The position numbers were made by a program, and so were the translations under genes. The notes under the pieces are model-generated. The model saw only the letters and a list, made by a program, of their open reading frames with translations, ran no database searches and was not told the DNA's origin. A DNA stretch of 64,000 bases from Methanofollis tationis. GTDB lineage: Archaea > Halobacteriota > Methanomicrobia > Methanomicrobiales > Methanofollaceae. Shown here piece by piece: positions 3,713 to 33,621 of this stretch; within the stretch, counting starts at the first letter, position 1, and every line of letters starts with the position of its first letter. The stretch lies in contig NZ_JABXWR010000001.1 in the NCBI RefSeq assembly GCF_013377755.1, forward strand, positions 1 through 64,000, written 5' to 3'.

Positions 3713-6700
3713 ATGAAGAAATGTGCTGTTTTTCATTTAATTTTAGAAAGAAAATCTGAACCTTCAGTGAATGCCGGACGGTATATCCCTCTGGTCCTGG
3801 GTCTGCTCCTCTGCCTCGCCCTGATACCGGCGACGGTCAGCGCCGACGGGATCGATCTGGTCACGGTGGGATCGGGCACCGTCTCAGGCGGACTCTGGAG
3901 CGATCCCGGCATCATGTGGAACACATCATGGCCATCGACCGGCGGCGTCGAGGTGACGAAGGCATATGCCCTGCCGGCGTACACTGACCTCGACTGGGCG
4001 CGCCTGTATGTGGCCGTGTATCTCGGGAGCACGGCGGAGGCAAAGCAGACCACCGTCGAGATCGCCATCGATGGCGACGGAGACGGCACCTTCGACCCCC
4101 TTGCCCTGGAGTCCCTGAATTCGACCGATATCGGCGTTATTCCGGGCAAAGCGCACATCACGCGGGAGAGCAGCAACTACGTCCTCTGGTACGATGTGAA
4201 GGATCTGATCTCTGCACAGAATCCCTCGGTGCTCGTCAATACGACCGGTTCGTTTGATGGGCGGGTGAAGGCTGCCTGCCTGGTGGCGGCATACAACGAC
4301 GGCGATGCCGACCGGGTATATTACCGGGTGAATGGGGGCCATTTCAACGGTCCGGGCAGCACCGATTTCGATCTCTCTGATCTCCCGGCGGCCTTTGAGG
4401 ATGCCGACCTGACCAATCTCTACCTGGCGAGCACCGAGGCGACGGAGTACACCTTCAACGGCGATACGATCGCCGCCTACGATTCTGACAAGGTCACCTA
4501 CAGCGGGTACAACAGGTTTGACGTGAACGCAAGCGTTGTATCGGGCTACAACACCTTTGCGTGGCCCGGTGCCGGGTCCTACTACCGGTCTGTCCTTGCA
4601 CTTCTTTCGGTGAAGGCGCAGCCGGCCAACCTCGAGATCACCGCCATCACGCCAAACGCCAACGAGATCTTTGCGAACGAGCCCAACACGATCGCGGCGA
4701 CGGTGAAAAACAACGGTACCTCTGCCTCGGGCGCCTTCCAGGTCTTGTTCTCGATCAATGGCGCCGTGCAGAACGTGAGCGTCTCTGACCTCGCCGCCGG
4801 GAACACGACGACCGTCTCGGTCGTCGACCCGGCGATCCGCGCCCTTGGCGACGCCGTGACGATCGTCGTCACGACGGACGCCTCCCCTGCAAACAACCTC
4901 ACCCTCACGAAGAGCGTGGTGTACAACGGCTACAAGGGCAAACGCTACACCGGCGGCGATGACATCGTCGAACTGACGAATTTCACGGTGACCGGGGGCC
5001 TTGCGTACTCCACCGGCGACTCGGCGTACATGAGCGGTTCGGCAGGCTGGACAGACTACACGGCGAACTGGACCCCTGCCGACCTCGCCCTTCCGGCCAA
5101 TGCAACAGTCGGGACAGCGTACCTCTGCGCCTTCTACACCTACGATCAGAGCATGGTGATGCCTGACAACATCACGCTCGCCTTCAACGGCGTGGGGGTG
5201 CCCTACCTCGCCCATTACACCGACCGGAAGCTCTACGGGACGTACAACTACCCCTCGGGCATGGTCGTCTACAATGTGACCGATGCCTTTGACCCTGCCG
5301 GCAACGGAGCGGTCTTCACAAACCTCGGCACCGGCAAGTCCTCGTTCAACGGCATGACGCTCTTCGTCGTCTACGAGGATCCCGCGGCGACACAGAAGCA
5401 GATCATCTTCAACGCCGGCTACGACATCCTCTCGGGCAGGGCATCGTATGCCGTCTCGCCCGAGGAGGCGACGGCCTATGCACCCTTCGCCGGGATCGCC
5501 TCCGCCGACAGCGCCCGCCTGATCACGGTCGCCCCGGCGGCGAGCGCCGAAGGGATCCTCCTCTTCGGGAATCAGACCTGGACGCCTGCCTGGAACTACG
5601 CCGGTTCTTCGAACCTCGGCATTGACGACCGCGATGTAACCGCATACCTCAACACAACCCCGGTCGCCGCCTTCAGGAGCGACAACGACTACTTCGATGC
5701 GGCGTGTGCGGTGCTTGTCCTCGACCTGGGCACTCCTGCCGCACAGGACCTCGAGATCACGGCCATCACGCCAAACGCCAACGAGATCTTTGCAAACGAG
5801 CCCAACACGATCGCGGCGACGGTCAAGAACAACGGCACCGCCGCATCGGGCGCCTTCCAGGTCTTGTTCTCGATCAATGGCGCCGTGCAGAACGTGAGCG
5901 TCTCTGACCTCGCCGCCGGGAACACGACGACCGTCTCGGTCGTCGACCCGGCGATCCGCGCCCTTGGCGACGCCGTGACGATCGTCGTCACGACGGACGC
6001 CTCCCCTGCAAACAACCTCACCCTCACGAAGAGCGTGGTGTACAACGGCTACAAGGGCAAACGCTACACCGGCGGCGATGACATCGTCGAACTGACGAAT
6101 TTCACGGTGACCGGGGGCCTTGCGTACTCCACCGGCGACTCGGCGTACATGAGCGGTTCGGCAGGCTGGACAGACTACACGGCGAACTGGACCCCTGCCG
6201 ACCTCGCCCTTCCGGCCAATGCAACAGTCGGGACAGCGTACCTCTGCGCCTTCTACACCTACGATCAGAGCATGGTGATGCCTGACAACATCACGCTCGC
6301 CTTCAACGGCGTGGGGGTGCCCTACCTCGCCCATTACACCGACCGGAAGCTCTACGGGACGTACAACTACCCCTCGGGCATGGTCGTCTACAATGTGACC
6401 GATGCCTTTGACCCTGCCGGCAACGGAGCGGTCTTCACAAACCTCGGCACCGGCAAGTCCTCGTTCAACGGCATGACGCTCTTCGTCGTCTACGAGGATC
6501 CCGCGGCGACACAGAAGCAGATCATCTTCAACGCCGGCTACGACATCCTCTCGGGCAGGGCATCGTATGCCGTCTCGCCCGAGGAGGCGACGGCCTATGC
6601 ACCCTTCGCCGGGATCGCCTCCGCCGACAGCGCCCGCCTGATCACGGTCGCCCCGGCGGCGAGCGCCGAAGGGATCCTCCTCTTCGGGAATCAGACCTGG

Positions 6701-23541: not shown

Positions 23542-23976
23542 TTATCCAAACAGTTCCGCACCGAGCAGTTTCCCGCCGGCGTCCAGCACCTTCCTGATCC
23601 CTTCCTCGACCTTGTCCACGCGGAGGATCAGCACCGCCCCTCCCTTCCCGGAATAGGCGTATGAGTACTCGATATTGATCCCGGCCTCGCCCAGGATCCG
23701 TGCGATATCGAAGAGGCCGCCGGGCTCGTCCCGCATGGCAACGGCGATCACGTCGGTGAACGAGACCATGAACCCGAGTTTGGTGAGCGTCTCATAGGCC
23801 CCGTCGGGTTTGTTCACGAGCGCCCGCACCACGCCGAACCCGTTCGCCTCCGCGATCGAGAAGGCGAGAATATTGATCCCGGCCTCTTCGAGGGCATGGG
23901 CGATCGCCGCAAGGCGCCCGGGCTTGTTCTCTGAAAAGATCGAGATCTGCTTGATGATATACTTCTTCTCTGCCAT
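23542..23976 (-). CDS. Tandem ACT-domain protein
   Basis: This 144-residue protein contains two ACT domains. The first is about residues 5-70 (QISIFSENKPGRLAAIAHAL, EAGINILAFSI) and the second about 75-144 (VAMRDEPGGLFDIARILGEA, GINIEYSYAYSG). ACT domains bind amino acids and give allosteric control. It lies three bases after a phenylacetate-CoA ligase gene, and the same trio occurs in other archaea and bacteria next to aryl-CoA ligases, so it probably senses an aromatic amino acid or derivative for that pathway. Confidence 0.88.
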   Translation of the reverse strand: MAEKKYIIKQISIFSENKPGRLAAIAHALEEAGINILAFSIAEANGFGVVRALVNKPDGAYETLTKLGFMVSFTDVIAVAMRDEPGGLFDIARILGEAGINIEYSYAYSGKGGAVLILRVDKVEEGIRKVLDAGGKLLGAELFG

Positions 23977-23979
23977 AAT

Positions 23980-25284
23980 TCAGTACACTCTCCGGTCAAT
24001 CACTCTCTTTGCCTTCCCCTCAAAGCGCGGGAGGGTCCCCGGCGCCACGAGTTCCACGTCCGCCGCCACGTTCAGGGAGTTCCTCAGGTCGTGGGTGACC
24101 TTCGCCTTCACCCGCATGAGATCGGTGATCTTGTCGGAAAAGGCGTCGCGGCTCATCTCCACCCGCACGAGCATCGAGTCCAGCGCACCCCGCCGGTCCA
24201 CCTCGATCTGGAAGGCCGACCCGAGCACCTCGGGAATGCCCATCAGGGTGTGCTCCACCTGCGACGGGAAGACATTGATCCCGCGCACGATGAGCATATC
24301 GTCGACCCGCCCCTGGATCCGCATGATCCGCGGCGAGGTCCGCCCGCAGGCGCAGACCGCATCGTCGAGCATGGTGACGTCCCCGATCCGGTAGCGGATC
24401 ATCGGGAGCGCCTCCTTTTTCAGGACGGTCATCACGAGTTCGCCCTTCTCGCCCGGCGGCAGCTGTTCCCCGGTCTCCGGGTCGATGATCTCGGGGTAGG
24501 CGATGTCGCCCCAGATATGGATCCCCTGCTGCTCGGTGCACTCGGTGAACATCGGGCCCGAGAGTTCTGAGGTGCCGTAGATATCGAAGACCCGGATCCC
24601 GAGCGCCTCCTGGAGCCCGGTGCGCATCCGCTCTGACCAGGGTTCGGCCCCCAGGATCCCGACGCGAAGGTTCGTGTCGTTCCTGATCGAGACCCCCATC
24701 CGCTCGGCCGTCTCGCCCAGGTGGACGAGGTAGGACGGGGTGCAGGCGATCGCCGTCACGTGCAGGTCCTGCATCAGCTCGATCTGCCGCTCGGTGTTCC
24801 CGGTGCCGATCGGCAGCACCGTCGCCCCGATCCGCTCGGCGCCGTAGTGGAGGCCGAGCCCGCCGGTGAACAGTCCGTAGCCGTAGCTCACCTGCATCAC
24901 GTCGCCGCGGCCAAGCCCGCAGGCGGTGAGGGAGCGGGCGAGGGAGGTCGTCCAGATCTCCAGGTCGTTTGCCGTGTAGCCGACGACGGTGGGCTTGCCG
25001 GTCGTCCCGGAAGAGACATGGTAGCGCACCAGCTCGTCCTGCGAGGCCGTGAAGATCCGGTCAGGGTAGTTGTCCCGCAGGTCGCTCTTGTACATGAAGG
25101 GCAGCTTTGCGATATCGTCGAGCGTCTTCACATCGTCGGGGTGGACGCCGGCCGCCCGCATCCGCTCATGGTAAAAGTTCGAGAAACTGTACAGCCGGTA
25201 GACGAGCGTCTTGAGCAGGCGGTACTGGAGGCGCTTCAACTCCTCGGGCGGCATCTCCTCCATACGGGGATCCCACATCCTCAC
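23980..25284 (-). CDS. Phenylacetate-CoA ligase (paralog 2)
   Basis: The 434-residue AMP-forming enzyme couples an aryl acid (phenylacetate or indoleacetate) to CoA with ATP. Motifs include SSGTTGKPTVVGYT (phosphate loop), YGTSELSGPMFTECTEQQG, YRIGDVTMLDD, GRVDDMLIVRGINVFPSQVE, and the C-terminal lysine region LPRFEGKAKRVIDRR. Length fits PaaK. It overlaps the upstream paralog by four bases (ATGA) and is followed by the ACT protein, so the three form one operon. In methanogens these ligases are thought to convert aromatic acids to acyl-CoAs for 2-oxoacid oxidoreductases that make aromatic amino acids. Confidence 0.92.
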   Translation of the reverse strand: MRMWDPRMEEMPPEELKRLQYRLLKTLVYRLYSFSNFYHERMRAAGVHPDDVKTLDDIAKLPFMYKSDLRDNYPDRIFTASQDELVRYHVSSGTTGKPTVVGYTANDLEIWTTSLARSLTACGLGRGDVMQVSYGYGLFTGGLGLHYGAERIGATVLPIGTGNTERQIELMQDLHVTAIACTPSYLVHLGETAERMGVSIRNDTNLRVGILGAEPWSERMRTGLQEALGIRVFDIYGTSELSGPMFTECTEQQGIHIWGDIAYPEIIDPETGEQLPPGEKGELVMTVLKKEALPMIRYRIGDVTMLDDAVCACGRTSPRIMRIQGRVDDMLIVRGINVFPSQVEHTLMGIPEVLGSAFQIEVDRRGALDSMLVRVEMSRDAFSDKITDLMRVKAKVTHDLRNSLNVAADVELVAPGTLPRFEGKAKRVIDRRVY

Positions 25285-26573
25285 CAGATCGCCCCCCGCC
25301 GGTCGACCACGCGCTTTGCCTTGCCCTCGAAGCGCGGGAGGGTGCCGGGCTCCACGAACTTCACCGTCGTCCGCAGGTTCAGCGTCTCCCTGATCGCCCC
25401 GGCCACTTTCTTCTGCAGCCGCTGGAGGTCGGCCAGTTCGCCGGAGAAGTAGCTCTTGTTGATCTCCACCTCGATCGTCATCTCATCAAGATGATTGATC
25501 CTGTCCACATAAACCATATACTGATCCCCTACTTCGGGAAGGGAGAGAAGCGTGTGCTCGATCTGCGAAGGGAAGACGTTGATGCCCCGGATCACGAGCA
25601 TGTCGTCGGCCCGGCCTGAGAGGCGGGCGATGCGCTTGCCGCGCCCGCACGGGCAGTCGTCCGTGAGGAAGCGGGTGATGTCCCCGGTCCGGTAGCGGAT
25701 CAGGGGCATCGCCTCTTTGACCAGGGGGGTGATCACCAGTTCGCCGGTCTCGCCGTCGGGCAGGCGTTCCCCGGTCGCCGGGTCGATGATCTCGGCCAGG
25801 TAACAGTCGTGCCAGATATGGAGCCCGTCCTTCTCCTCGCACTCGAAGGCGACGCCGGGACCGTACATCTCGCTCATCCCGTAGCTGTCATAGGCATCCA
25901 CGCCGAGGCGACGTTCCAGCTCCGCCCGCATGCTCTCGGACCAGGGCTCGGCGCCGAAGGTGGCGATCCGCAGGCTCTCCAGGGACGCCCCCATCTGTTC
26001 GGCCACCTCGACGAGGTGCAGCCCGTATCCGGGCGTGCTGTTGATCGCCGTGACCCCGAAGTCCTCGATCATCTCGATCTGCCGCTTCGTGTTCCCGGTG
26101 GAGCTCGGGATCACGGTCATCCCGACCCGCTCGGCCCCGTAGTGGAAGCCCAGGCCGCCGGTGAAGAGACCGTAGCCGAGGATGTTCTGGAAGACGTCGT
26201 CCTCGGTCAGGCCGACCATCGTGAGGTTCCGCGCCATCAGTTCGGTCCAGGTATCGAGGTCCTGGCGGGTGTAGCCGACGACGGTGGGCTTGCCGGTCGT
26301 CCCCGAGGTCGTGTGGATCCTGACCACCTCGCGCTTTGGCACCGCAAAAAAACCGAACGGGTAACCTTCCCTCAGGTCTTTTTTCGTCGTGAAGGGGAGT
26401 TTCTCGAGATCGTCGAGCGTCTGGATATCGCCGGGTGAGACCCCGGCTTTCTGAAACGCCCTCCGGTAGAACTCGACATTCTGAACCTGGCGCACCGTCC
26501 ATTTCAGCCGGGAGAGCTGCAGCGCCTCAAGGTCGTCCCCCGCGATCGTTTCTATTTCCCTGTTCCAGAACAT
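25281..26573 (-). CDS. Phenylacetate-CoA ligase (paralog 1)
   Basis: This 430-residue AMP-forming aryl-CoA ligase shows TSGTTGKPTVVGYT, YGMSEMYGPGVAFECEEKDG, YRTGDITRFL, GRADDMLVIRGINVFPSQIE and LPRFEGKAKRVVDRR. It is clearly a paralog of the next gene but diverged enough to suggest different substrates or a heteromeric pair. I start at the ATG giving MFWNREIETIAGDD because earlier in-frame residues look like non-coding DNA (HRPWPCRQCQRDRKDC). It heads the operon. Confidence 0.92.
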   Translation of the reverse strand: MFWNREIETIAGDDLEALQLSRLKWTVRQVQNVEFYRRAFQKAGVSPGDIQTLDDLEKLPFTTKKDLREGYPFGFFAVPKREVVRIHTTSGTTGKPTVVGYTRQDLDTWTELMARNLTMVGLTEDDVFQNILGYGLFTGGLGFHYGAERVGMTVIPSSTGNTKRQIEMIEDFGVTAINSTPGYGLHLVEVAEQMGASLESLRIATFGAEPWSESMRAELERRLGVDAYDSYGMSEMYGPGVAFECEEKDGLHIWHDCYLAEIIDPATGERLPDGETGELVITPLVKEAMPLIRYRTGDITRFLTDDCPCGRGKRIARLSGRADDMLVIRGINVFPSQIEHTLLSLPEVGDQYMVYVDRINHLDEMTIEVEINKSYFSGELADLQRLQKKVAGAIRETLNLRTTVKFVEPGTLPRFEGKAKRVVDRRGAIW

Positions 26574-26687: not shown

Positions 26688-27581
26688 TCACGCCGTCAGG
26701 CGCGGATCGGCGGCGGCCTCTGCCCGGGCCAGGAGGGCGCTCTTCTCCTTGTCCTTGATCTCGAGCATGATGTCGATGTCGCGGGGCCGTGAGGCCGCAA
26801 GGAACGCCCTGAAATGCGCCAGATCGATGGCATGGGTATGAGCCCCTTTTCGTGCACCCGGCTTCTGCGACGAGTAGTCGACCATCGGTATGCCGTCGGA
26901 TCGCCCCCATGTCCGTGCGCAGATCGCCAGCGCCTCAGGCATCTCCTCTCCCGAAGAGTTGCACTCGTGGTGAAAGGTATCGAAGAGCACCGGGATGCCG
27001 CAGGCCTGGTTCAGAGCGCAACATTCGGCCGCGGTATAAAGGCGATCGTCGTTTTCGACGACGAGACGTCGCCTGATCGCAACGGGCAGATCGCGGTAGC
27101 GATCGAGAAAACGCTCCATCGCCGATGCTTTATCTCCATAGACCCCACCGGCGTGGATCTGGATCTTTGCCGTGGTGTCCAGGCCCATGGCGTCAAGGAC
27201 GGCGGCATGGTACGCCAGTTCGGCGATGCTCCGCGCCGTCACGCCCCCGTCGGGCGAGTTGATCAGGGTGAACTGGTCCGGGTGCATCGAGATGCGCATC
27301 CGGCTCTCCCGGATCAGATCGCCGATCTCGGTAAAACTCCCGGAAAACTCCACCTCCCAGTCGATCTCGTTCACCGGGTGGGAGGCGAAGGGAATCAGGT
27401 CAGAGGTGATCCTGAAGAAGAGGAGGCCGTGGTCGATGTTGAACTGGAGGGTGCTGGAGAGGCAGGCGAGGTTCTCCCTGACGGTCGAGCGAAACCGCTC
27501 AGGGCTCCACGAGCGCAGCCTGAAGGTCCGGGCCGAGGTGCACCCGAGCCCGATGTTCACGCAGGGATAGCCGATCCGCAT
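26688..27581 (-). CDS. uvsE: UV DNA damage endonuclease (UvsE/UvdE), apparently active
   Basis: This 297-residue TIM-barrel endonuclease nicks DNA 5' to UV photoproducts in an alternative excision pathway. Metal and catalytic residues are present: His in ASHPVNE, His in RISMHPDQF, His in IQIHAGG, Glu in VVENDD, Asp and His in LFDTFHHE, His residues in GAHTHAID, and Glu in MLEIKDKE. The start at MRIGYPCVN is set by GGAGG upstream (GAAGGAGGAACAGATG). It overlaps the 3' end of a paralog transcribed just before it, so the two are co-expressed. Confidence 0.92.
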   Translation of the reverse strand: MRIGYPCVNIGLGCTSARTFRLRSWSPERFRSTVRENLACLSSTLQFNIDHGLLFFRITSDLIPFASHPVNEIDWEVEFSGSFTEIGDLIRESRMRISMHPDQFTLINSPDGGVTARSIAELAYHAAVLDAMGLDTTAKIQIHAGGVYGDKASAMERFLDRYRDLPVAIRRRLVVENDDRLYTAAECCALNQACGIPVLFDTFHHECNSSGEEMPEALAICARTWGRSDGIPMVDYSSQKPGARKGAHTHAIDLAHFRAFLAASRPRDIDIMLEIKDKEKSALLARAEAAADPRLTA

Positions 27582-27592
27582 CTGTTCCTCCT

Positions 27593-28492
27593 TCAAGCCC
27601 CTCTTTTTCTCAGTTCTTTCCCCGGAATGAGCCGCGGGTCGTCGAAGGCGGCGATCATCGCGATCAGGGCGCTCTGTTCCCGGTCCTGAAAGTCGATGAC
27701 AATATCGGGATCAGCGGGCATGGATGCCGCGAGCACCTCTGCAAATAGGTCTGCGTCGATGGTGTGGGCCGGTCGTCCGTCCGCCTCTGGCGTGGCGAAC
27801 ACGAGGATCGGCGCCCCGTCTCCCTCGTGCCAGGTCGCCGCGCACCGCCGTATCGCTTCGGCGGAGCTGAAAGGCGAAGGGGCGCTGTCGCGGTGAAGAT
27901 GGTCGTACACGACCGGGACGCCGCACTCTTCTGCGACGGCGCAGCAGTCGGCGACCGACAGGGTGTCGTCGTTTCTGATCGCGATCCTCCGCCTGATCCC
28001 GTCGGGCAGCCTGTTCAGCCACTTGAAAGTCCTATCCTGAGCCGATTCCCTGCCCGGGCCGCCTCCTGCCCACGCAATGACCTTTGCATCGGTCCCGAGT
28101 TCCATAGCGTCCAGGATCGTTGCAGCGTGTGCTGCCTCCCTCTCTCCTTTCCCTTCAGGAACGGCAAAACCGTACGAAGGTTGGACAGCGATCCTCATCC
28201 CTGCGTCCCTGATAAAGGCCCCGACGGCAGCGAAATCGGCAGCAAACTCTTCTGCCCAGATGAGCGTGTTTGCCGGGTGGGTGGCATAGGGGATGAGCCC
28301 CGGACCGATGACAAAAAAATACAGCCCTGCCTTCCTGTTGAACTCCAGAATTCTGGCAATACAGGAAAGGTTCTCGGCAATCGTCAGGATCAGGTGATCC
28401 CTGGAAAATACCCTGAGGTCAAAGGTACGGCTCGGCGAGCATCCGATGGATCGGTTTGCGCAGGGATAACCGATTTTCATGTGAGCGGTCAT
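27593..28492 (-). CDS. Degenerate UvdE paralog lacking catalytic residues
   Basis: The 299-residue protein aligns along its whole length with the UvsE encoded next to it (MKIGYPCANRSIGCSPSRTF, LIPYATHPAN, ATILDAMELG, IRRRIAIRNDD, IDFQDREQSALIA). The active site is altered: MHP becomes VQP, IHAG becomes AWAG, VEND becomes IRND, and LEIKDKE becomes IDFQDRE. The first-shell His in ATHPAN and the DHLH Asp/His are kept. The frame is open at full length, so it is not a simple pseudogene. I infer a non-catalytic partner or a changed function. A TATA-like box at 28512-28519 points leftward, about 25 bases from the ATG, suggesting a leaderless transcript. Confidence 0.88.
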   Translation of the reverse strand: MTAHMKIGYPCANRSIGCSPSRTFDLRVFSRDHLILTIAENLSCIARILEFNRKAGLYFFVIGPGLIPYATHPANTLIWAEEFAADFAAVGAFIRDAGMRIAVQPSYGFAVPEGKGEREAAHAATILDAMELGTDAKVIAWAGGGPGRESAQDRTFKWLNRLPDGIRRRIAIRNDDTLSVADCCAVAEECGVPVVYDHLHRDSAPSPFSSAEAIRRCAATWHEGDGAPILVFATPEADGRPAHTIDADLFAEVLAASMPADPDIVIDFQDREQSALIAMIAAFDDPRLIPGKELRKRGA

Positions 28493-28510
28493 GTCATTTC
28501 AGCGGGCTGC

Positions 28511-28520
28511 CTTATAAATG
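28511..28520 (-). promoter_or_regulatory. TATA box of the UvdE-pair operon
   Basis: On the minus strand the sequence reads CATTTATAAGG. It is centred about 25 bases before the ATG at 28492, the usual archaeal spacing to the transcription start, so the message is probably leaderless. Confidence 0.5.
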
Positions 28521-28628
28521 GTTTCTTTTGCTTCATGACCGTCGGCATCGCCTCTCTGCCATTCTATTAGATCCCTCTCTTCCCGGCCCTCCGCCATGCT
28601 CCGGGGTGATACCCTTAATACCCCTGAG

Positions 28629-28640
28629 AAAAAATATAAA
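28629..28640 (+). promoter_or_regulatory. TATA box of lysS
   Basis: GAAAAAATATAAAGC is a good archaeal TATA element about 65 bases before the lysS ATG, predicting a leader of roughly 40 bases. Confidence 0.5.
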
Positions 28641-28702
28641 GCACCATTTCACCCGTCTGGACCACATCGGGTGGATACCCCCGCATCCTGGATGGAAATA
28701 CC

Positions 28703-30208
28703 ATGAGTGATAGCAGCCAGATCACCTTTGACGAGGTAAAACTCACCAAATACCGCGAACTCACCGGCGACGGCAGACCGATCTACCCGGCCCACTATGA
28801 GCGAAAGCACACCCTTGCCGAGATCAGGGAGCGATACGCAGAGATCGGTCACGACCCCTCAGAAGAGGAGGTCTGCACCGCCGGACGGATCTACATCATC
28901 CGCCACCACGGCAAAACGGTCTTTATCGATATCGGCGACGCCTCGGCCCGGATCCAGCTCTATATCAGGAAAAACGACGTCGGCGATGAGGCCTTTGAGT
29001 TCCTCAAGAAATATCTCGACGCCGGCGACATCATCGGGGTGACCGGACGCGTCTTCAGGACGAAGATGGGCGAGATCACCATCTGGGCGAGCGCCTACAC
29101 GCTGCTTGCCAAGTCGGTCTGTGCCATGCCCGAGAAGTTCCACGGCCTGAAGAACACCGAAGCGCGCTACCGCCAGCGCTACCTCGACCTGATCATGAAC
29201 GAAGAGACGAGAGAAACCTTCCGTCTCAGGAGCCGGACGATCGCCGAACTGCGGAACTTCCTGAACAGCCGCGGCTTTATGGAGTTCGAGACCCCCACCC
29301 TCCAGCCGGTCTACGGCGGGGCGAATGCCCGTCCCTTCATCACCTACCACAACGCCCTCGAACAGCAACTGTTCCTGCGCATCGCCCCTGAACTCTACTT
29401 AAAGCGTCTCGTCGTCGGCGGCTTCGAGAAGGTCTACGAGTTCTCGAAGAACTTCAGGAACGAGGATATCGACACAAAGCACAACCCCGAGTTCTCGATG
29501 GTGGAGATCTACGCCGCCTATCACGACTACAGGGACATGATGGACCTCACCGAGGAGATCATCACCGACCTCGTCGTCCACGCCCGCGGCACCACCACCG
29601 TCACCTTCGATGAAACCGAGATCTCCTTCGCCCGTCCGTGGCGCAGGCTTACGATGGAGGACGCCGTGAAGGAGTACGGCGGCATCGACGTCTATGCCAC
29701 CCCGCTCGACGACCTTGCCAGGATCGCCGAGCAGGAGAAAATCGACAAGCGCGAGACCGCACAGACCCACGGCGACTACCTCCCGCTCTTCTTCGATCAC
29801 TACTGCGAGGAGAAACTGGTCCAGCCCACCTTCATCTACGACTTCCCGGTCGAGAACTCGCCGCTCGCAAAACGCCACCGGACAAAACCCGGCTTTACCG
29901 AACGTTTCGAGCTCTTCGTCTACGGCATGGAGCTGGCAAACGGCTTCTCCGAGCTCAACGACCCCATCGACCAGAAGGAACGGTTCGAGGAGCAGGACAA
30001 AAAGCGCCGTCTCGGCGACCTTGAGGCGCAGATGATCGACTACGACTTCATCAACGCCCTCGGCTACGGCATGCCCCCAACCGGCGGTGTCGGGATCGGC
30101 ATGGACCGTCTGATCATGATGATCACCGGGAACGATTCCATTAAAGAAGTGATCCTCTTCCCGTCGATGCGGACCGTCGCCCGCAGCGATGAGAAGGCAG
30201 AAGAATAA
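28703..30208 (+). CDS. lysS: Lysyl-tRNA synthetase, class II
   Basis: The 501-residue enzyme charges tRNA-Lys. The N-terminal OB fold (about 55-160, with GRIYIIRHHGKTVFIDIGD) binds the anticodon. The class II core shows motif 1 region MEFETPTLQP, motif 2 FRNEDIDTKHNPEFSMVE and motif 3 GIGMDRLIMM. Many methanogens use a class I enzyme, whereas this order may carry the bacterial-type class II form. A T7 run follows at 30211-30217. Confidence 0.96.
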   Translation: MSDSSQITFDEVKLTKYRELTGDGRPIYPAHYERKHTLAEIRERYAEIGHDPSEEEVCTAGRIYIIRHHGKTVFIDIGDASARIQLYIRKNDVGDEAFEFLKKYLDAGDIIGVTGRVFRTKMGEITIWASAYTLLAKSVCAMPEKFHGLKNTEARYRQRYLDLIMNEETRETFRLRSRTIAELRNFLNSRGFMEFETPTLQPVYGGANARPFITYHNALEQQLFLRIAPELYLKRLVVGGFEKVYEFSKNFRNEDIDTKHNPEFSMVEIYAAYHDYRDMMDLTEEIITDLVVHARGTTTVTFDETEISFARPWRRLTMEDAVKEYGGIDVYATPLDDLARIAEQEKIDKRETAQTHGDYLPLFFDHYCEEKLVQPTFIYDFPVENSPLAKRHRTKPGFTERFELFVYGMELANGFSELNDPIDQKERFEEQDKKRRLGDLEAQMIDYDFINALGYGMPPTGGVGIGMDRLIMMITGNDSIKEVILFPSMRTVARSDEKAEE

Positions 30209-30217: not shown

Positions 30218-30355
30218 CCGGCGCAGTCCCTGGCCGCAAGGCATAAGAACTCCCCCGCCCCCTCAGCGATATAACCGCACGCAATCGGGTGTCCGGTGCG
30301 CCCTGCCCGGGCGAAAGACCTGTACAGGACCCAAAGAGGCGGGGATGTGATCAGA

Positions 30356-32701
30356 ATGGAATGGTACAGCAACCTCGATCTCTCCATCCTCATCGTCGAC
30401 TCAGAGCTCCATGCCGAGACCGCGGGCGGGATCGCCCTCCGCCAGGTCATCGAGATCCTCGGCGACCTCGACTTCAGGGTCATCGAGGCGCTGACGGTGG
30501 AGGACGCCCTCTCCATCTACCGGTCGGTCTACCCGGACATCGCCTGCGTGCTCCTGGACTGGGACCTCCAGCCCGAATCGGCCGCTTCGGCCGGGCCCGT
30601 GGAGATGATCAGGACGATCAGGAAACGCAACAGGGACCTTCCGATATTCCTGTTCACCAGCAAACTCGCCGTCAACGAGATCCCGCTCGAGGTGATCAGG
30701 TCGATAGACGGCTATTTCTGGAAACTGGACAACACGCCGCGTTTCATCGCCGGCCGCATCGAGGACGTCACCGGCGACTACCTGGACAAACTCCTCCCGG
30801 CATTCTTCGGGGAACTGGTCCGCTACACGCAGGAGTACAAATACGCCTGGCACACGCCCGGCCACACCGGCGGCGTCGCCTTCCTGAAGTCGCCGGTGGG
30901 AAAACTCTTTTTCAGGTTCTACGGGGAGAACACCCTCAGGTCAGACCTCTCGGTCTCGGTCCCCGAACTGGGATCGCTCCTCGAACACACCGGCGTGGTC
31001 GGCGCCGCCGAATCCGAGGCCGCCCGGATCTTCGGGGCCGACCGGACCTACTTTCTCACGAACGGCACCTCGACCTCGAACAAGGTCGTCTTCTCCGGGT
31101 GCGTGGGGCCCGGCGATATCGTCCTTGTCGATCGCAACTGCCACAAGTCGGTGATGTATGCGATCATCATGACCGGGGCGGTCCCGGTCTACCTGATCCC
31201 GACCAGGAACACCTACGGGATCATCGGCCCGATCCATGCGGCCGAGTTCGATCCCGCCGTAATACAGAAGAAATGCGCCGACCATCCCCTCATTGCCGAT
31301 GCGGGCCGGACGCCCCGCCTTGCCGTGGTCACGAACTCCACCTATGATGGTCTCTGCTACGATGTGGAGGCGATCATCGAGAAACTCACCGGGACCGCCG
31401 GTGTCCTTCTCTTTGACGAGGCATGGTACGGCTACGCCCGGTTTCACCCGCTGTACCGCGGACGCTATGCGATGACCCCGGTGACGGCCGCACCTGATAG
31501 GCCGGCGATCTTTGCCACCCAGTCGACGCACAAGGTCCTCGCCGCCTTCTCGCAGGGCTCGATGATCCACCTCAGGGACTCGCACTGCCCCGAGGAAGCC
31601 AGGATCGATCCCGATGGGTTCAACGAGGCCTTTATGATGCACACCTCCACCTCGCCCCAGTACAGCATCATCGCCTCTCTCGACGTGGCGGCGAAGATGA
31701 TGGAGGGTGAATCGGGCACCGTTCTCATCACCGATACTCTTGAGGAGGCCCTGATCTTCCGCCAGAAGATGGTCCAGCTGATGGCGCAGGTGCTCGAGGA
31801 CGAAGAGGCCGGGAGCAGGCGCTGGTGGTTTCCTGTCTGGCAGCCCGGCGTGGGGCAGGGCCAGTATGCAGAGCATTTTCTCACCCTCAGGTCGAGGATA
31901 CAGGAGGGGGACGCCGTCGAACTCGGCCGCCACCTCGATTACTGGACCTTAAAGCCCGGTGACGCCTGGCACGGTTTCGACGGGATCGAGGAGAACTACT
32001 GCCTTCTCGATCCCCTGAAGGTCACCGTCCTCACGCCCGGGATCGATCCCGGCGGCCTGGTGGAGGAGCGCGGCATCCCGGCCGCCATCGTCTCCAGGTT
32101 CCTTCAGGAACAGGGGATCGTCGTGGAGAAGACCGGGTTCTACTCGTTTTTCATCCTCTTCACCATGGGGATCTCGAAAGGAAAGTCGGGCACCCTGATC
32201 GCCCAGCTCTTCGAGTTCAAGGACCAGTACGACGCCAATACCCCGCTCGAACAGGTGTTCCCGGAGATCGTGAAGACCTACCCCCGGATCTACGGTGGAA
32301 TGGGGCTTGCCGACCTCTGCGACGCCATGCACGCATACCTGAAGGGGCATGGTATTGCAGAGATCCAGAAGGACGTCTATGCCCGGATCCCGCGCCCCGC
32401 GATGACGCCTGCTGAGGCCTACAGGATGATGATCGCCGGAAAGGCGGAAAAAGTCCGGCTCCAGGACCTCGCCGGCCGGACCGCCGCGGTGATGGTCGTC
32501 CCGTACCCCCCGGGTATTCCGATCTGGATGCCCGGCGAGGTCCTTTCCGCCGATGACCGGGACATCATCGATTTCCTCCTGCTCTACGAGGACTTCGACG
32601 CTGCCTTCCCGGGTTTTGAGACCGAGATCCACGGCGTGATCAGGGACGCCGGCGACGACCGGAAGGTCTATTCAATTCTCTGTCTGAGAGAAGACCGATG
32701 A
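30356..32701 (+). CDS. Orn/Lys/Arg decarboxylase with receiver-like wing domain
   Basis: About 781 residues from the ATG chosen (GTG at 30296 would add 20). Residues about 8-130 form the flavodoxin/receiver-like wing typical of bacterial inducible basic amino acid decarboxylases (LSILIVDSE, CVLLDWDLQ). The fold-I PLP core follows with AWHTPGHTGG, FLTNGTSTSNK, the cofactor Asp in LFDEAWYGYARF and the PLP lysine in QSTHKVLAAFSQG. The C-terminal domain is complete (MTPAEAYRMMIAG, PYPPGIPIWMPGE). It would convert arginine, lysine or ornithine to the amine with CO2 release, consuming a proton. It overlaps carbamate kinase by four bases (ATGA), pointing to arginine or ornithine as substrate. Archaea usually use pyruvoyl enzymes, so transfer from bacteria is likely. 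Confidence 0.9.
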   Translation: MEWYSNLDLSILIVDSELHAETAGGIALRQVIEILGDLDFRVIEALTVEDALSIYRSVYPDIACVLLDWDLQPESAASAGPVEMIRTIRKRNRDLPIFLFTSKLAVNEIPLEVIRSIDGYFWKLDNTPRFIAGRIEDVTGDYLDKLLPAFFGELVRYTQEYKYAWHTPGHTGGVAFLKSPVGKLFFRFYGENTLRSDLSVSVPELGSLLEHTGVVGAAESEAARIFGADRTYFLTNGTSTSNKVVFSGCVGPGDIVLVDRNCHKSVMYAIIMTGAVPVYLIPTRNTYGIIGPIHAAEFDPAVIQKKCADHPLIADAGRTPRLAVVTNSTYDGLCYDVEAIIEKLTGTAGVLLFDEAWYGYARFHPLYRGRYAMTPVTAAPDRPAIFATQSTHKVLAAFSQGSMIHLRDSHCPEEARIDPDGFNEAFMMHTSTSPQYSIIASLDVAAKMMEGESGTVLITDTLEEALIFRQKMVQLMAQVLEDEEAGSRRWWFPVWQPGVGQGQYAEHFLTLRSRIQEGDAVELGRHLDYWTLKPGDAWHGFDGIEENYCLLDPLKVTVLTPGIDPGGLVEERGIPAAIVSRFLQEQGIVVEKTGFYSFFILFTMGISKGKSGTLIAQLFEFKDQYDANTPLEQVFPEIVKTYPRIYGGMGLADLCDAMHAYLKGHGIAEIQKDVYARIPRPAMTPAEAYRMMIAGKAEKVRLQDLAGRTAAVMVVPYPPGIPIWMPGEVLSADDRDIIDFLLLYEDFDAAFPGFETEIHGVIRDAGDDRKVYSILCLREDR

Positions 32702-33621
32702 AGATCGTTGCGGCGCTCGGCGGGAACGCGATCGTCAGGTACCGGGAGAAAGGAACGGCCGAGGAACAGCTCGGCCACATCGACGCGGCGGTTGCTCCCC
32801 TCGCCAGAATGGCGGCGGCCGGTCATGCGGTCATGATCACGCACGGCAACGGTCCGCAGGTCGGCGACATCCTCCTCCAGAACGAGTGTGCCAGGGACGC
32901 CGTCCCCAGGATGCCGCTCGACATCTGCGGGGCCGAGAGCCAGGGGATGATCGGCTACATGATCCAGCAGTGCATGCAGAACCGTCTCGGGCCGGGGGCG
33001 CAGGTGGCGACGGTGCTCAGCCGTACGCTCGTCGATCCCGGCGACCCGGCATTTGCCACTCCTTCCAAGGCGATAGGGCCGTATTATTCCGGACCTGAGG
33101 CCCGGGCCCTTGCGGCGGCAGAGGGATGGGCGATGCGCGAGGAGGAGGGCCGCGGCTGGCGGCGGATCGTCCCGTCCCCCGACCCCCTGGAGGTCCTTGA
33201 GATCGAGACGATCAAAACACTCTTCCATGCGGGAACCGTCGTCGTCGCGGGCGGCGGCGGGGGCGTCCCGGTGGTCAGGCAGGGCGGCCTCCTGCGGGGG
33301 GTTGAGGCGGTCGTCGACAAGGATCTCTCCGCCGAACGCATCGCCGTCGGCATCGGCGCCGATCTCCTCCTGATGCTCACCGATGTCCCGGGCGTCTTCT
33401 CCAGCTTTGGAACACCGGCCCGGACCCTCCTCAACAGCCTGGACGCCGCCACGGCGCGCCGCCTCCTCGCAGAAGGCGAGTTCGGGGAGGGCTCAATGGC
33501 GCCGAAGGTGCTGGCGGCGATCCGTTTTGTCGGATCGGGCGGGAAAAAAGCGATCATCGCCCATCTCGACGACGCCGAGGCCGCCCTTGCCGGAGAGGCC
33601 GGGACGCTTTTCACCGCCTGA
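32698..33621 (+). CDS. arcC: Carbamate kinase
   Basis: This 307-residue amino acid kinase makes ATP from carbamoyl phosphate in the arginine deiminase pathway, or runs in reverse. Signature segments are KIVAALGGNAIVRY at the start, THGNGPQVGDILLQNE, the substrate Lys/Asp region VVAGGGGGVPVVR, AVVDKDLSAERIA, and FGEGSMAPKVLAAIRF. It is translationally coupled to the decarboxylase gene upstream and converges on arcA with an 11-base overlap of the two 3' ends. Confidence 0.95.
   Translation: MKIVAALGGNAIVRYREKGTAEEQLGHIDAAVAPLARMAAAGHAVMITHGNGPQVGDILLQNECARDAVPRMPLDICGAESQGMIGYMIQQCMQNRLGPGAQVATVLSRTLVDPGDPAFATPSKAIGPYYSGPEARALAAAEGWAMREEEGRGWRRIVPSPDPLEVLEIETIKTLFHAGTVVVAGGGGGVPVVRQGGLLRGVEAVVDKDLSAERIAVGIGADLLLMLTDVPGVFSSFGTPARTLLNSLDAATARRLLAEGEFGEGSMAPKVLAAIRFVGSGGKKAIIAHLDDAEAALAGEAGTLFTA

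What the first reader, a model, noticed from the sequence alone, without database searches (positions are those of the whole stretch)
26688..28492. Live and dead UV-endonuclease paralogs in one operon
Seen: two full-length UvdE proteins overlap head to tail. The first-transcribed one has replaced key residues (His to Gln in the MHP motif, His to Trp in IHAG, Glu to Arg in VEND, Glu to Asp in LEIK) while its frame, length and remaining fold motifs are kept. Known: UvdE needs those His/Glu residues for its metal cluster. Inference: a heteromer in which the dead subunit recognises damage or recruits partners, or an unrelated sugar-phosphate activity.
Basis: partly seen in the sequence, partly recalled or inferred. 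Interest (0 to 1): 0.65.

Follow-up and report, generated by a model that had tools for sequence, protein, structure and literature searches.

The report
Conserved dead twin of UV endonuclease
In the methane-making archaeon Methanofollis, the gene for a DNA-repair enzyme that nicks UV-damaged DNA sits directly behind a duplicate that can no longer cut but has been kept by natural selection in most species of the genus, so the crippled copy probably has a non-cutting job, perhaps as a helper of the working enzyme.

Summary
Window 26691-27581 (-) encodes a normal UV damage endonuclease (UvsE/UvdE). Just upstream, 27596-28480 (-) encodes a full-length paralog with its catalytic site destroyed. 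The paralog has the UVDE fold (AlphaFold pTM 0.84; TM 0.85 to solved UVDEs). It has lost H101, H143, E175, the H/D231 ligand, E269, the Q104-Y105 damage probe and three active-site loops.

Survey: 9 of 12 Methanofollis genomes carry the dead copy, always between lysS and the live copy, in one operon. No other genome of 232 in the order or 393 sampled from the phylum does. The nine form one clade (100/100) and share the same three loop deletions: one tandem duplication, one loss of catalysis. The dead copies are under purifying selection (omega 0.11-0.33; omega=1 rejected in all 8 pairs). They are not pseudogenes.

No alternative metal site is conserved, so a new metal-dependent sugar-phosphate activity is unlikely. 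The canonical damage-probing site is gone too, so damage recognition in the known way is also unlikely. My best reading is a non-catalytic accessory protein, made together with live UvsE and probably its partner. That partnership is inferred. It is not obligatory: three species lack the dead copy, and one MAG keeps it beside a wrecked live gene. I found no published report.

The parts
27593..28492 (-). dead uvsE paralog (pseudo-UvdE); ORF 28492..27593. Conserved start ATG 28478-28480 (MKIGYPC), 295 aa, stop TGA 27593-27595; the ATG at 28492 adds MTAH
26688..27581 (-). live UvsE/UvdE UV damage endonuclease, 297 aa, ATG 27579-27581, all ligands present
   Evidence: (TIGR00629 183 bits, above its 124.45 cut-off)
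27582..27592 (-). 11-nt junction AGGAGGAACAG holding the Shine-Dalgarno of the live gene, directly after the dead gene's TGA; no room for a separate promoter
28493..28702 (.). intergenic region between the divergent lysS and the pair; expected to hold the operon's promoter (inferred)
28703..30208 (+). lysS (lysyl-tRNA synthetase), divergent neighbour; syntenic anchor on one side in every Methanofollis species whose contig reaches it
25284..26573 (-). phenylacetate-CoA-ligase-like gene, syntenic anchor on the other side

Best explanation
A single tandem duplication of uvsE in the stem of Methanofollis gave an upstream copy that lost its metal cluster, damage probe and three active-site loops, but kept the UVDE TIM-barrel fold and its place at the head of the uvsE operon. 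It persists as a non-catalytic accessory protein (pseudoenzyme), made from the same transcript just before live UvsE. Its most likely job is to bind live UvsE, or the same repair assembly, through a conserved outer surface (lead: helix 27-51 with the dead-specific R43-E46-K50 stripe) and so modulate the nuclease's stability, loading or activity. Shown: homology, predicted fold, loss of catalytic residues, synteny, single origin, purifying selection. Inferred: co-transcription, physical partnership, and what it does to the live enzyme.
For: Fold kept: AlphaFold pLDDT 83, pTM 0.84; Foldseek best hits are all solved UVDEs (3tc3, TM 0.85/0.87), far above other TIM barrels. Catalysis lost: H101, H143, E175, H/D231 and E269 all replaced in 9 of 9 dead copies, Q104-Y105 lost; all retained in 10 of 10 live copies. 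Adjacency: dead copy always directly upstream of the live one between lysS and PaaK, gap -1 to 41 nt, TGATG in 4 species. Single origin: clade support 100/100, three shared loop deletions, own-species live copy not the nearest. Selection: omega 0.11-0.33, 2dlnL 7.9-136 against omega=1, 9 of 9 ORFs intact; in three of four comparable species pairs dead dN is no higher than live dN. Six of 15 dead-specific invariant sites lie in helix 27-51 (p 0.0006, post hoc).
Against: The dead copy is missing in three species that keep the live gene (G085, G091, G092), at least two losses if G088's copy is vertical. One MAG (G094) keeps an intact dead gene next to a truncated, frameshifted live remnant. The known UVDEs are, to my knowledge, monomers. 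No interaction, expression or phenotype data exist. Even the live archaeal UVDE has uncertain importance: the S. acidocaldarius knock-out had no repair phenotype (PMC3139894).
Confidence: 0.5

Rival explanations
1. The dead copy is a selected non-catalytic protein with its own job that does not need live UvsE, for example binding DNA or another ligand or protein. The shared operon is only a legacy of the tandem duplication.
For: G094 keeps an intact dead copy while its live copy is wrecked. The dead gene has its own turnover: G094's dead gene groups with G087's although the genome is closest to G000/G089 (AU p 0.0018; dS 2.0 against 0.37 genome-wide). Tyr6 (9 of 9) and Asn10 (8 of 9) at the N-terminal DNA-facing strand are kept.
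Against: The dead copy was never found away from the uvsE locus. The live remnant in G094 is still recognisable, so that loss may be recent. The dead proteins are not more basic than the live ones (net charge -1 to -10), which does not suggest a new strong DNA binder.
Confidence: 0.3
2. The dead copy is a slowly dying relic with no function.
For: At least two losses in 12 genomes; omega usually 2-4 times that of the live copy; catalytic residues replaced differently in different lineages.
Against: Omega is well below 1 in every pair (2dlnL 7.9-136), 9 of 9 reading frames are intact at 35-50% identity between types, the fold is kept, and 53 columns are invariant among the nine, 15 of them dead-specific.
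Confidence: 0.1
3. The dead copy acquired a different enzymatic activity, such as a sugar-phosphate isomerase or another AP-endonuclease-superfamily reaction.
For: The xylose-isomerase-like TIM-barrel superfamily holds many activities; Foldseek lists ketose epimerases as distant hits.
Against: No His is conserved among dead copies, and the ligand positions carry unrelated residues in the different types (Q/C/R, W/R/G, R/M/L, V/F/R). Conserved Asp, Glu and Cys are shared with the live enzyme except E46, which is on an outer helix. The other TIM barrels score TM below about 0.61.
Confidence: 0.06
4. The upstream frame is only a leader cistron that couples translation of live UvsE.
For: TGATG junctions and the Shine-Dalgarno placed at the stop codon.
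Against: That would need an open frame but no amino-acid constraint; omega 0.11-0.33 and the retained fold contradict it. Three species do without it.
Confidence: 0.03

Closest known systems
UV damage endonuclease UVDE/UvsE (PF03851; Thermus thermophilus 2j6v, Sulfolobus acidocaldarius 3tc3/4gle)
   Same: Homologous over the full length, same predicted TIM-barrel fold (TM 0.85), GYPC-N start motif and ND/DR(K)E motifs kept
   Different: Metal ligands, damage probe and three active-site loops lost; below the NCBIfam equivalog cut-off (61 against 124 bits)
XPF-family catalytic/non-catalytic pairs (XPF-ERCC1, MUS81-EME1; FANCM-FAAP24 in PMC3905867)
   Same: A repair nuclease family in which a paralog lost catalysis and is kept alongside its relatives (the family is divided into catalytic and non-catalytic members)
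   Different: Different fold. There heterodimers and DNA-binding HhH domains are proven; here no partner or DNA binding is shown and the pair is dispensable in some species
Endonuclease IV (Nfo) and xylose-isomerase-like TIM barrels (PF01261)
   Same: Same superfamily fold, distant Foldseek hits
   Different: No PF01261 match for the dead copy; no shared metal site

Membership tests
UvdE/UvsE family (PF03851) by descent | sequence match above the Pfam cut-off over the whole domain | tested here: met
   dead copy 76.1 bits, cut-off 24, profile 16-271 of 275
UvdE/UvsE family (PF03851) by descent | UVDE TIM-barrel fold | tested here: met
   AlphaFold pTM 0.84; best Foldseek hits 3tc3, 4gle, 2j6v with TM 0.81-0.87; predicted, not solved
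Functional UV damage endonuclease (TIGR00629 equivalog) | score above the equivalog cut-off 124.45 | tested here: not met
   dead 61.2 bits; live 183.1 bits meets it
Functional UV damage endonuclease (TIGR00629 equivalog) | metal ligands H101, H143, E175, D200, H203, H/D231, H244, E269 (Thermus numbering; list from own knowledge, E175 supported by the PDB entry title 'UVDE E175A') | tested here: not met
   H101, H143, E175, 231 and E269 replaced in 9 of 9 dead copies; only D200 is mostly kept (8 of 9); the live copy keeps all
Functional UV damage endonuclease (TIGR00629 equivalog) | Gln104-Tyr105 damage probe | tested here: not met
   lost in 9 of 9 dead copies; Q-F in all live Methanofollis copies, Q-Y in solved UVDEs
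Functional UV damage endonuclease (TIGR00629 equivalog) | incision 5' of CPD/6-4PP | not testable with these tools
   needs biochemistry
Catalytic/non-catalytic nuclease pair (XPF-ERCC1 type) | paralogous dead subunit kept under selection beside a live one | tested here: met
Catalytic/non-catalytic nuclease pair (XPF-ERCC1 type) | physical heterodimer | not testable with these tools
   only single chains can be modelled here
Catalytic/non-catalytic nuclease pair (XPF-ERCC1 type) | the two subunits co-occur obligatorily | tested here: not met
   live alone in G085, G091, G092; dead with a wrecked live gene in G094
Pseudogene | omega near 1 or a broken reading frame | tested here: not met
   omega 0.11-0.33, omega=1 rejected in 8 of 8 pairs; 9 of 9 frames intact
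AP_endonuc_2 / xylose isomerase-like enzymes (PF01261) | profile match and conserved metal-binding residues | tested here: not met
   no PF01261 match for the dead copy at 0.001; no conserved His among the nine

The most novel reading that the evidence does not exclude
Methanofollis uses a two-subunit UV damage endonuclease: a catalytic UvsE plus a co-produced pseudo-UvsE that binds it through the outer helix 27-51 and controls substrate loading or range. This would be the first heteromeric UVDE and a prokaryotic parallel to XPF-ERCC1, with three deeply diverged partner types exchanged or sorted among species.
Probability: 0.3. Interest if true: 0.7.

Novelty: new variant of a known kind. Interest (0 to 1): 0.5.

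Why it matters
Dead paralogs that work beside live nucleases are well known in the eukaryotic XPF family, but I found none described for the UV damage endonuclease family. Here nature supplies the comparison set for testing what the dead subunit does: species with both copies, species with the live copy only, and one with the live copy wrecked, all at the same locus. The role of archaeal UvdE itself is unsettled (no phenotype in Sulfolobus, PMC3139894), so a conserved partner would be a handle on what these proteins do in methanogens.

Tried and rejected
Pseudogene: rejected by omega and intact frames. Independent duplications in each lineage: rejected by the 100/100 clade, the shared deletions at live residues 110-115, 180 and 245-246, and own-species live copies not being the nearest. 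Alternative metal ligands: none conserved. Spread across Methanomicrobiales: rejected, Methanofollis only. Link with photolyase or UvrA content: none. UvrA is in all 12 genomes; photolyase in 5, three with and two without the dead copy. Mobile-element or viral origin: only ordinary distant UvsEs on plasmids and phages, none in viral contigs. Transfer of the dead copy into G088: not needed, its synonymous divergence from G086 fits vertical descent. A first genome-contig scan with the single dead protein found nothing; the profile scan named Methanofollis MAGs. The primary UVDE structure paper PMC3553973 is not held, so the ligand list rests on my knowledge plus PDB titles. A heterodimer model could not be run, since the tool takes single chains only.

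Full report
What is there. On the minus strand of the window, lysS (28703-30208, +) is followed by two UvdE-family genes and then two PaaK-like genes. The first-transcribed gene (28480..27593; 295 aa from the conserved ATG) is the dead copy; the second (27581..26688; 297 aa) is the live copy. Both match PF03851 (76 and 204 bits, cut-off 24), but only the live one passes the UvsE equivalog cut-off of TIGR00629 (183 against 61 bits, cut-off 124). These are the only two UvdE genes in the genome. The ATG of the live gene lies 11 nt behind the dead gene's stop, with AGGAGG between. In four relatives the junction is TGATG. There is no room for a separate promoter between the genes, so co-transcription is likely (inference).

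Loss of the active site. In Thermus UVDE numbering (ligand list from my own knowledge; PDB titles 'UVDE E175A', 'UVDE K229L' and 'UVDE 3 metals' confirm part of it), the dead copy of the window has H101Q, H143W, E175R, H/D231V and E269D. It also lacks the Q104-Y105 probe and keeps D200 and H203. In all nine dead copies found, positions 101, 143, 175, 231 and 269 are replaced, but by different residues: Q/C/R, W/R/G, R/M/L, V/F/R, D/L. All ten complete live copies keep the canonical residues, with the archaeal Asp at 231 and Q-F for the probe. All nine dead copies share three deletions, at live residues 110-115 (loop after MHPDQF), 180 (after VENDD) and 245-246 (before the H244-equivalent), each beside an active-site motif. 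No His is conserved among the dead copies; the conserved acidic and Cys residues are those of the live family, except E46 on an outer helix. So an alternative metal site is not supported.

The fold is kept. AlphaFold2 with seven sequences gave pLDDT 83 and pTM 0.84 for the dead copy, and 87.8 and 0.88 for the live one. The nine best Foldseek hits of the dead model are all solved UVDE structures (TM 0.80-0.87), and the next TIM barrels fall to TM of about 0.61 or less.

Distribution and origin. PF03851 and a dead-copy profile were run over 232 genomes of the order, and PF03851 over 393 sampled from the phylum. The dead copy occurs in 9 of the 12 genomes of the window's genus, which is Methanofollis by the record titles of the same contigs, and nowhere else. 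Every instance lies at the same locus, lysS | dead | live | PaaK, where contigs allow it to be seen. G085, G091 and G092 have lysS directly next to live uvsE. In the tree the dead copies form one clade (100/100) that joins the Methanofollis live copies (100/95), so one tandem duplication in the genus stem is the simplest account. The dead clade has long branches, so its exact attachment to the live clade is less certain than its unity. The shared deletions support the unity independently. At least two losses of the dead copy follow if inheritance in G088 was vertical, which its synonymous divergence allows.

Selection. A codon model (GY94, pairwise ML) gives omega 0.11-0.33 for eight dead pairs, with omega=1 rejected each time (2dlnL 7.9-136), and 0.04-0.17 for live pairs. 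All nine frames are intact. Dead dN equals live dN in two of the comparable pairs (G000-G089, G086-G088), is lower in one (G086-G090) and is 2.5 times higher in G086-G095. This is a constrained protein, not a relic.

Two complications. First, G094 (Methanofollis sp. DJKA126_ANT-KO_bin.43) has an intact dead gene followed by a live gene that is frameshifted near its start and has lost most of its length, with no other UvdE in that 88%-complete MAG. The remnant is still recognisable, so the loss may be recent. Second, the dead gene's history departs from the species'. UvrA and PaaK place G094 beside G000/G089 (dS about 0.37), but its dead gene is far from theirs (dS 2.0) and groups with G087's. 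The tree with G000, G089 and G094 held together is rejected (AU p 0.0018, though the group was named after seeing the trees). Three deeply diverged dead types thus exist, with replacement or sorting between lineages.

How it most likely works. The damage probe, the flanking loop and the metal cluster are lost together. So neither cutting nor the known way of reading photoproducts (dual dinucleotide flipping, described in PMC8307549) can be assumed for the dead copy. What is kept is the barrel, the operon position and a dead-specific set of fixed residues. Six of these 15 sites are in helix 27-51, including a R43-E46-K50 stripe (p 0.0006, chosen after looking). The best reading is a pseudoenzyme that acts as an accessory or partner protein of UvsE. 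The step from 'selected non-catalytic protein' (shown by sequence, about 0.85) to 'partner of UvsE' (inferred, about 0.5) is the weak one, and G094 and the live-only species show it cannot be an obligatory partnership.

Relation to known systems. By descent it is a UvdE family member; by function it fails the defining tests of a UV damage endonuclease. It resembles the catalytic/non-catalytic pairing in the XPF family (PMC3905867), but heterodimerisation is untested here. Searches of open papers for Methanoculleus or Methanofollis with UVDE/UvsE, and for inactive UVDE paralogs, found nothing; that library lacks most subscription journals. The UVDE of Sulfolobus acidocaldarius had no detectable repair phenotype when disrupted (PMC3139894), so the biological role even of the live archaeal protein is open.

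Noticed in passing
L043:2962-3300 (G094, contig JASGMW010000007.1): Live uvsE is a truncated, frameshifted remnant behind an intact dead copy: the reverse of the live-only species.
   Followed up: partly
dead gene in L043, L035, window, L037: The dead-gene tree conflicts with the UvrA and PaaK trees (G094 with G087 instead of G000/G089; AU p 0.0018), which suggests allele replacement or sorting of ancient dead types.
   Followed up: partly
23542-26573: Two tandem PaaK-like genes (53% identical) followed by an ORF resembling an ACT-domain protein, next to uvsE; the two PaaK genes recur beside uvsE in all Methanofollis loci whose contig reaches them.
   Followed up: no
30296-33621: An 801-aa ORF resembling an Orn/Lys/Arg decarboxylase with an extra N-terminal domain, overlapping by 4 nt a carbamate-kinase-like ORF; named by eye, not searched.
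   Followed up: no
L036, between live uvsE and PaaK (reverse-complement positions 5301-5940): Three copies of a stretch of about 62 nt in G088, each matching the same place in G085: a possible short repeat array.
   Followed up: no
G173:C134:1003-1755: A second, very divergent full-length UvdE in one order member with 4% contamination; probably a contaminant contig.
   Followed up: no
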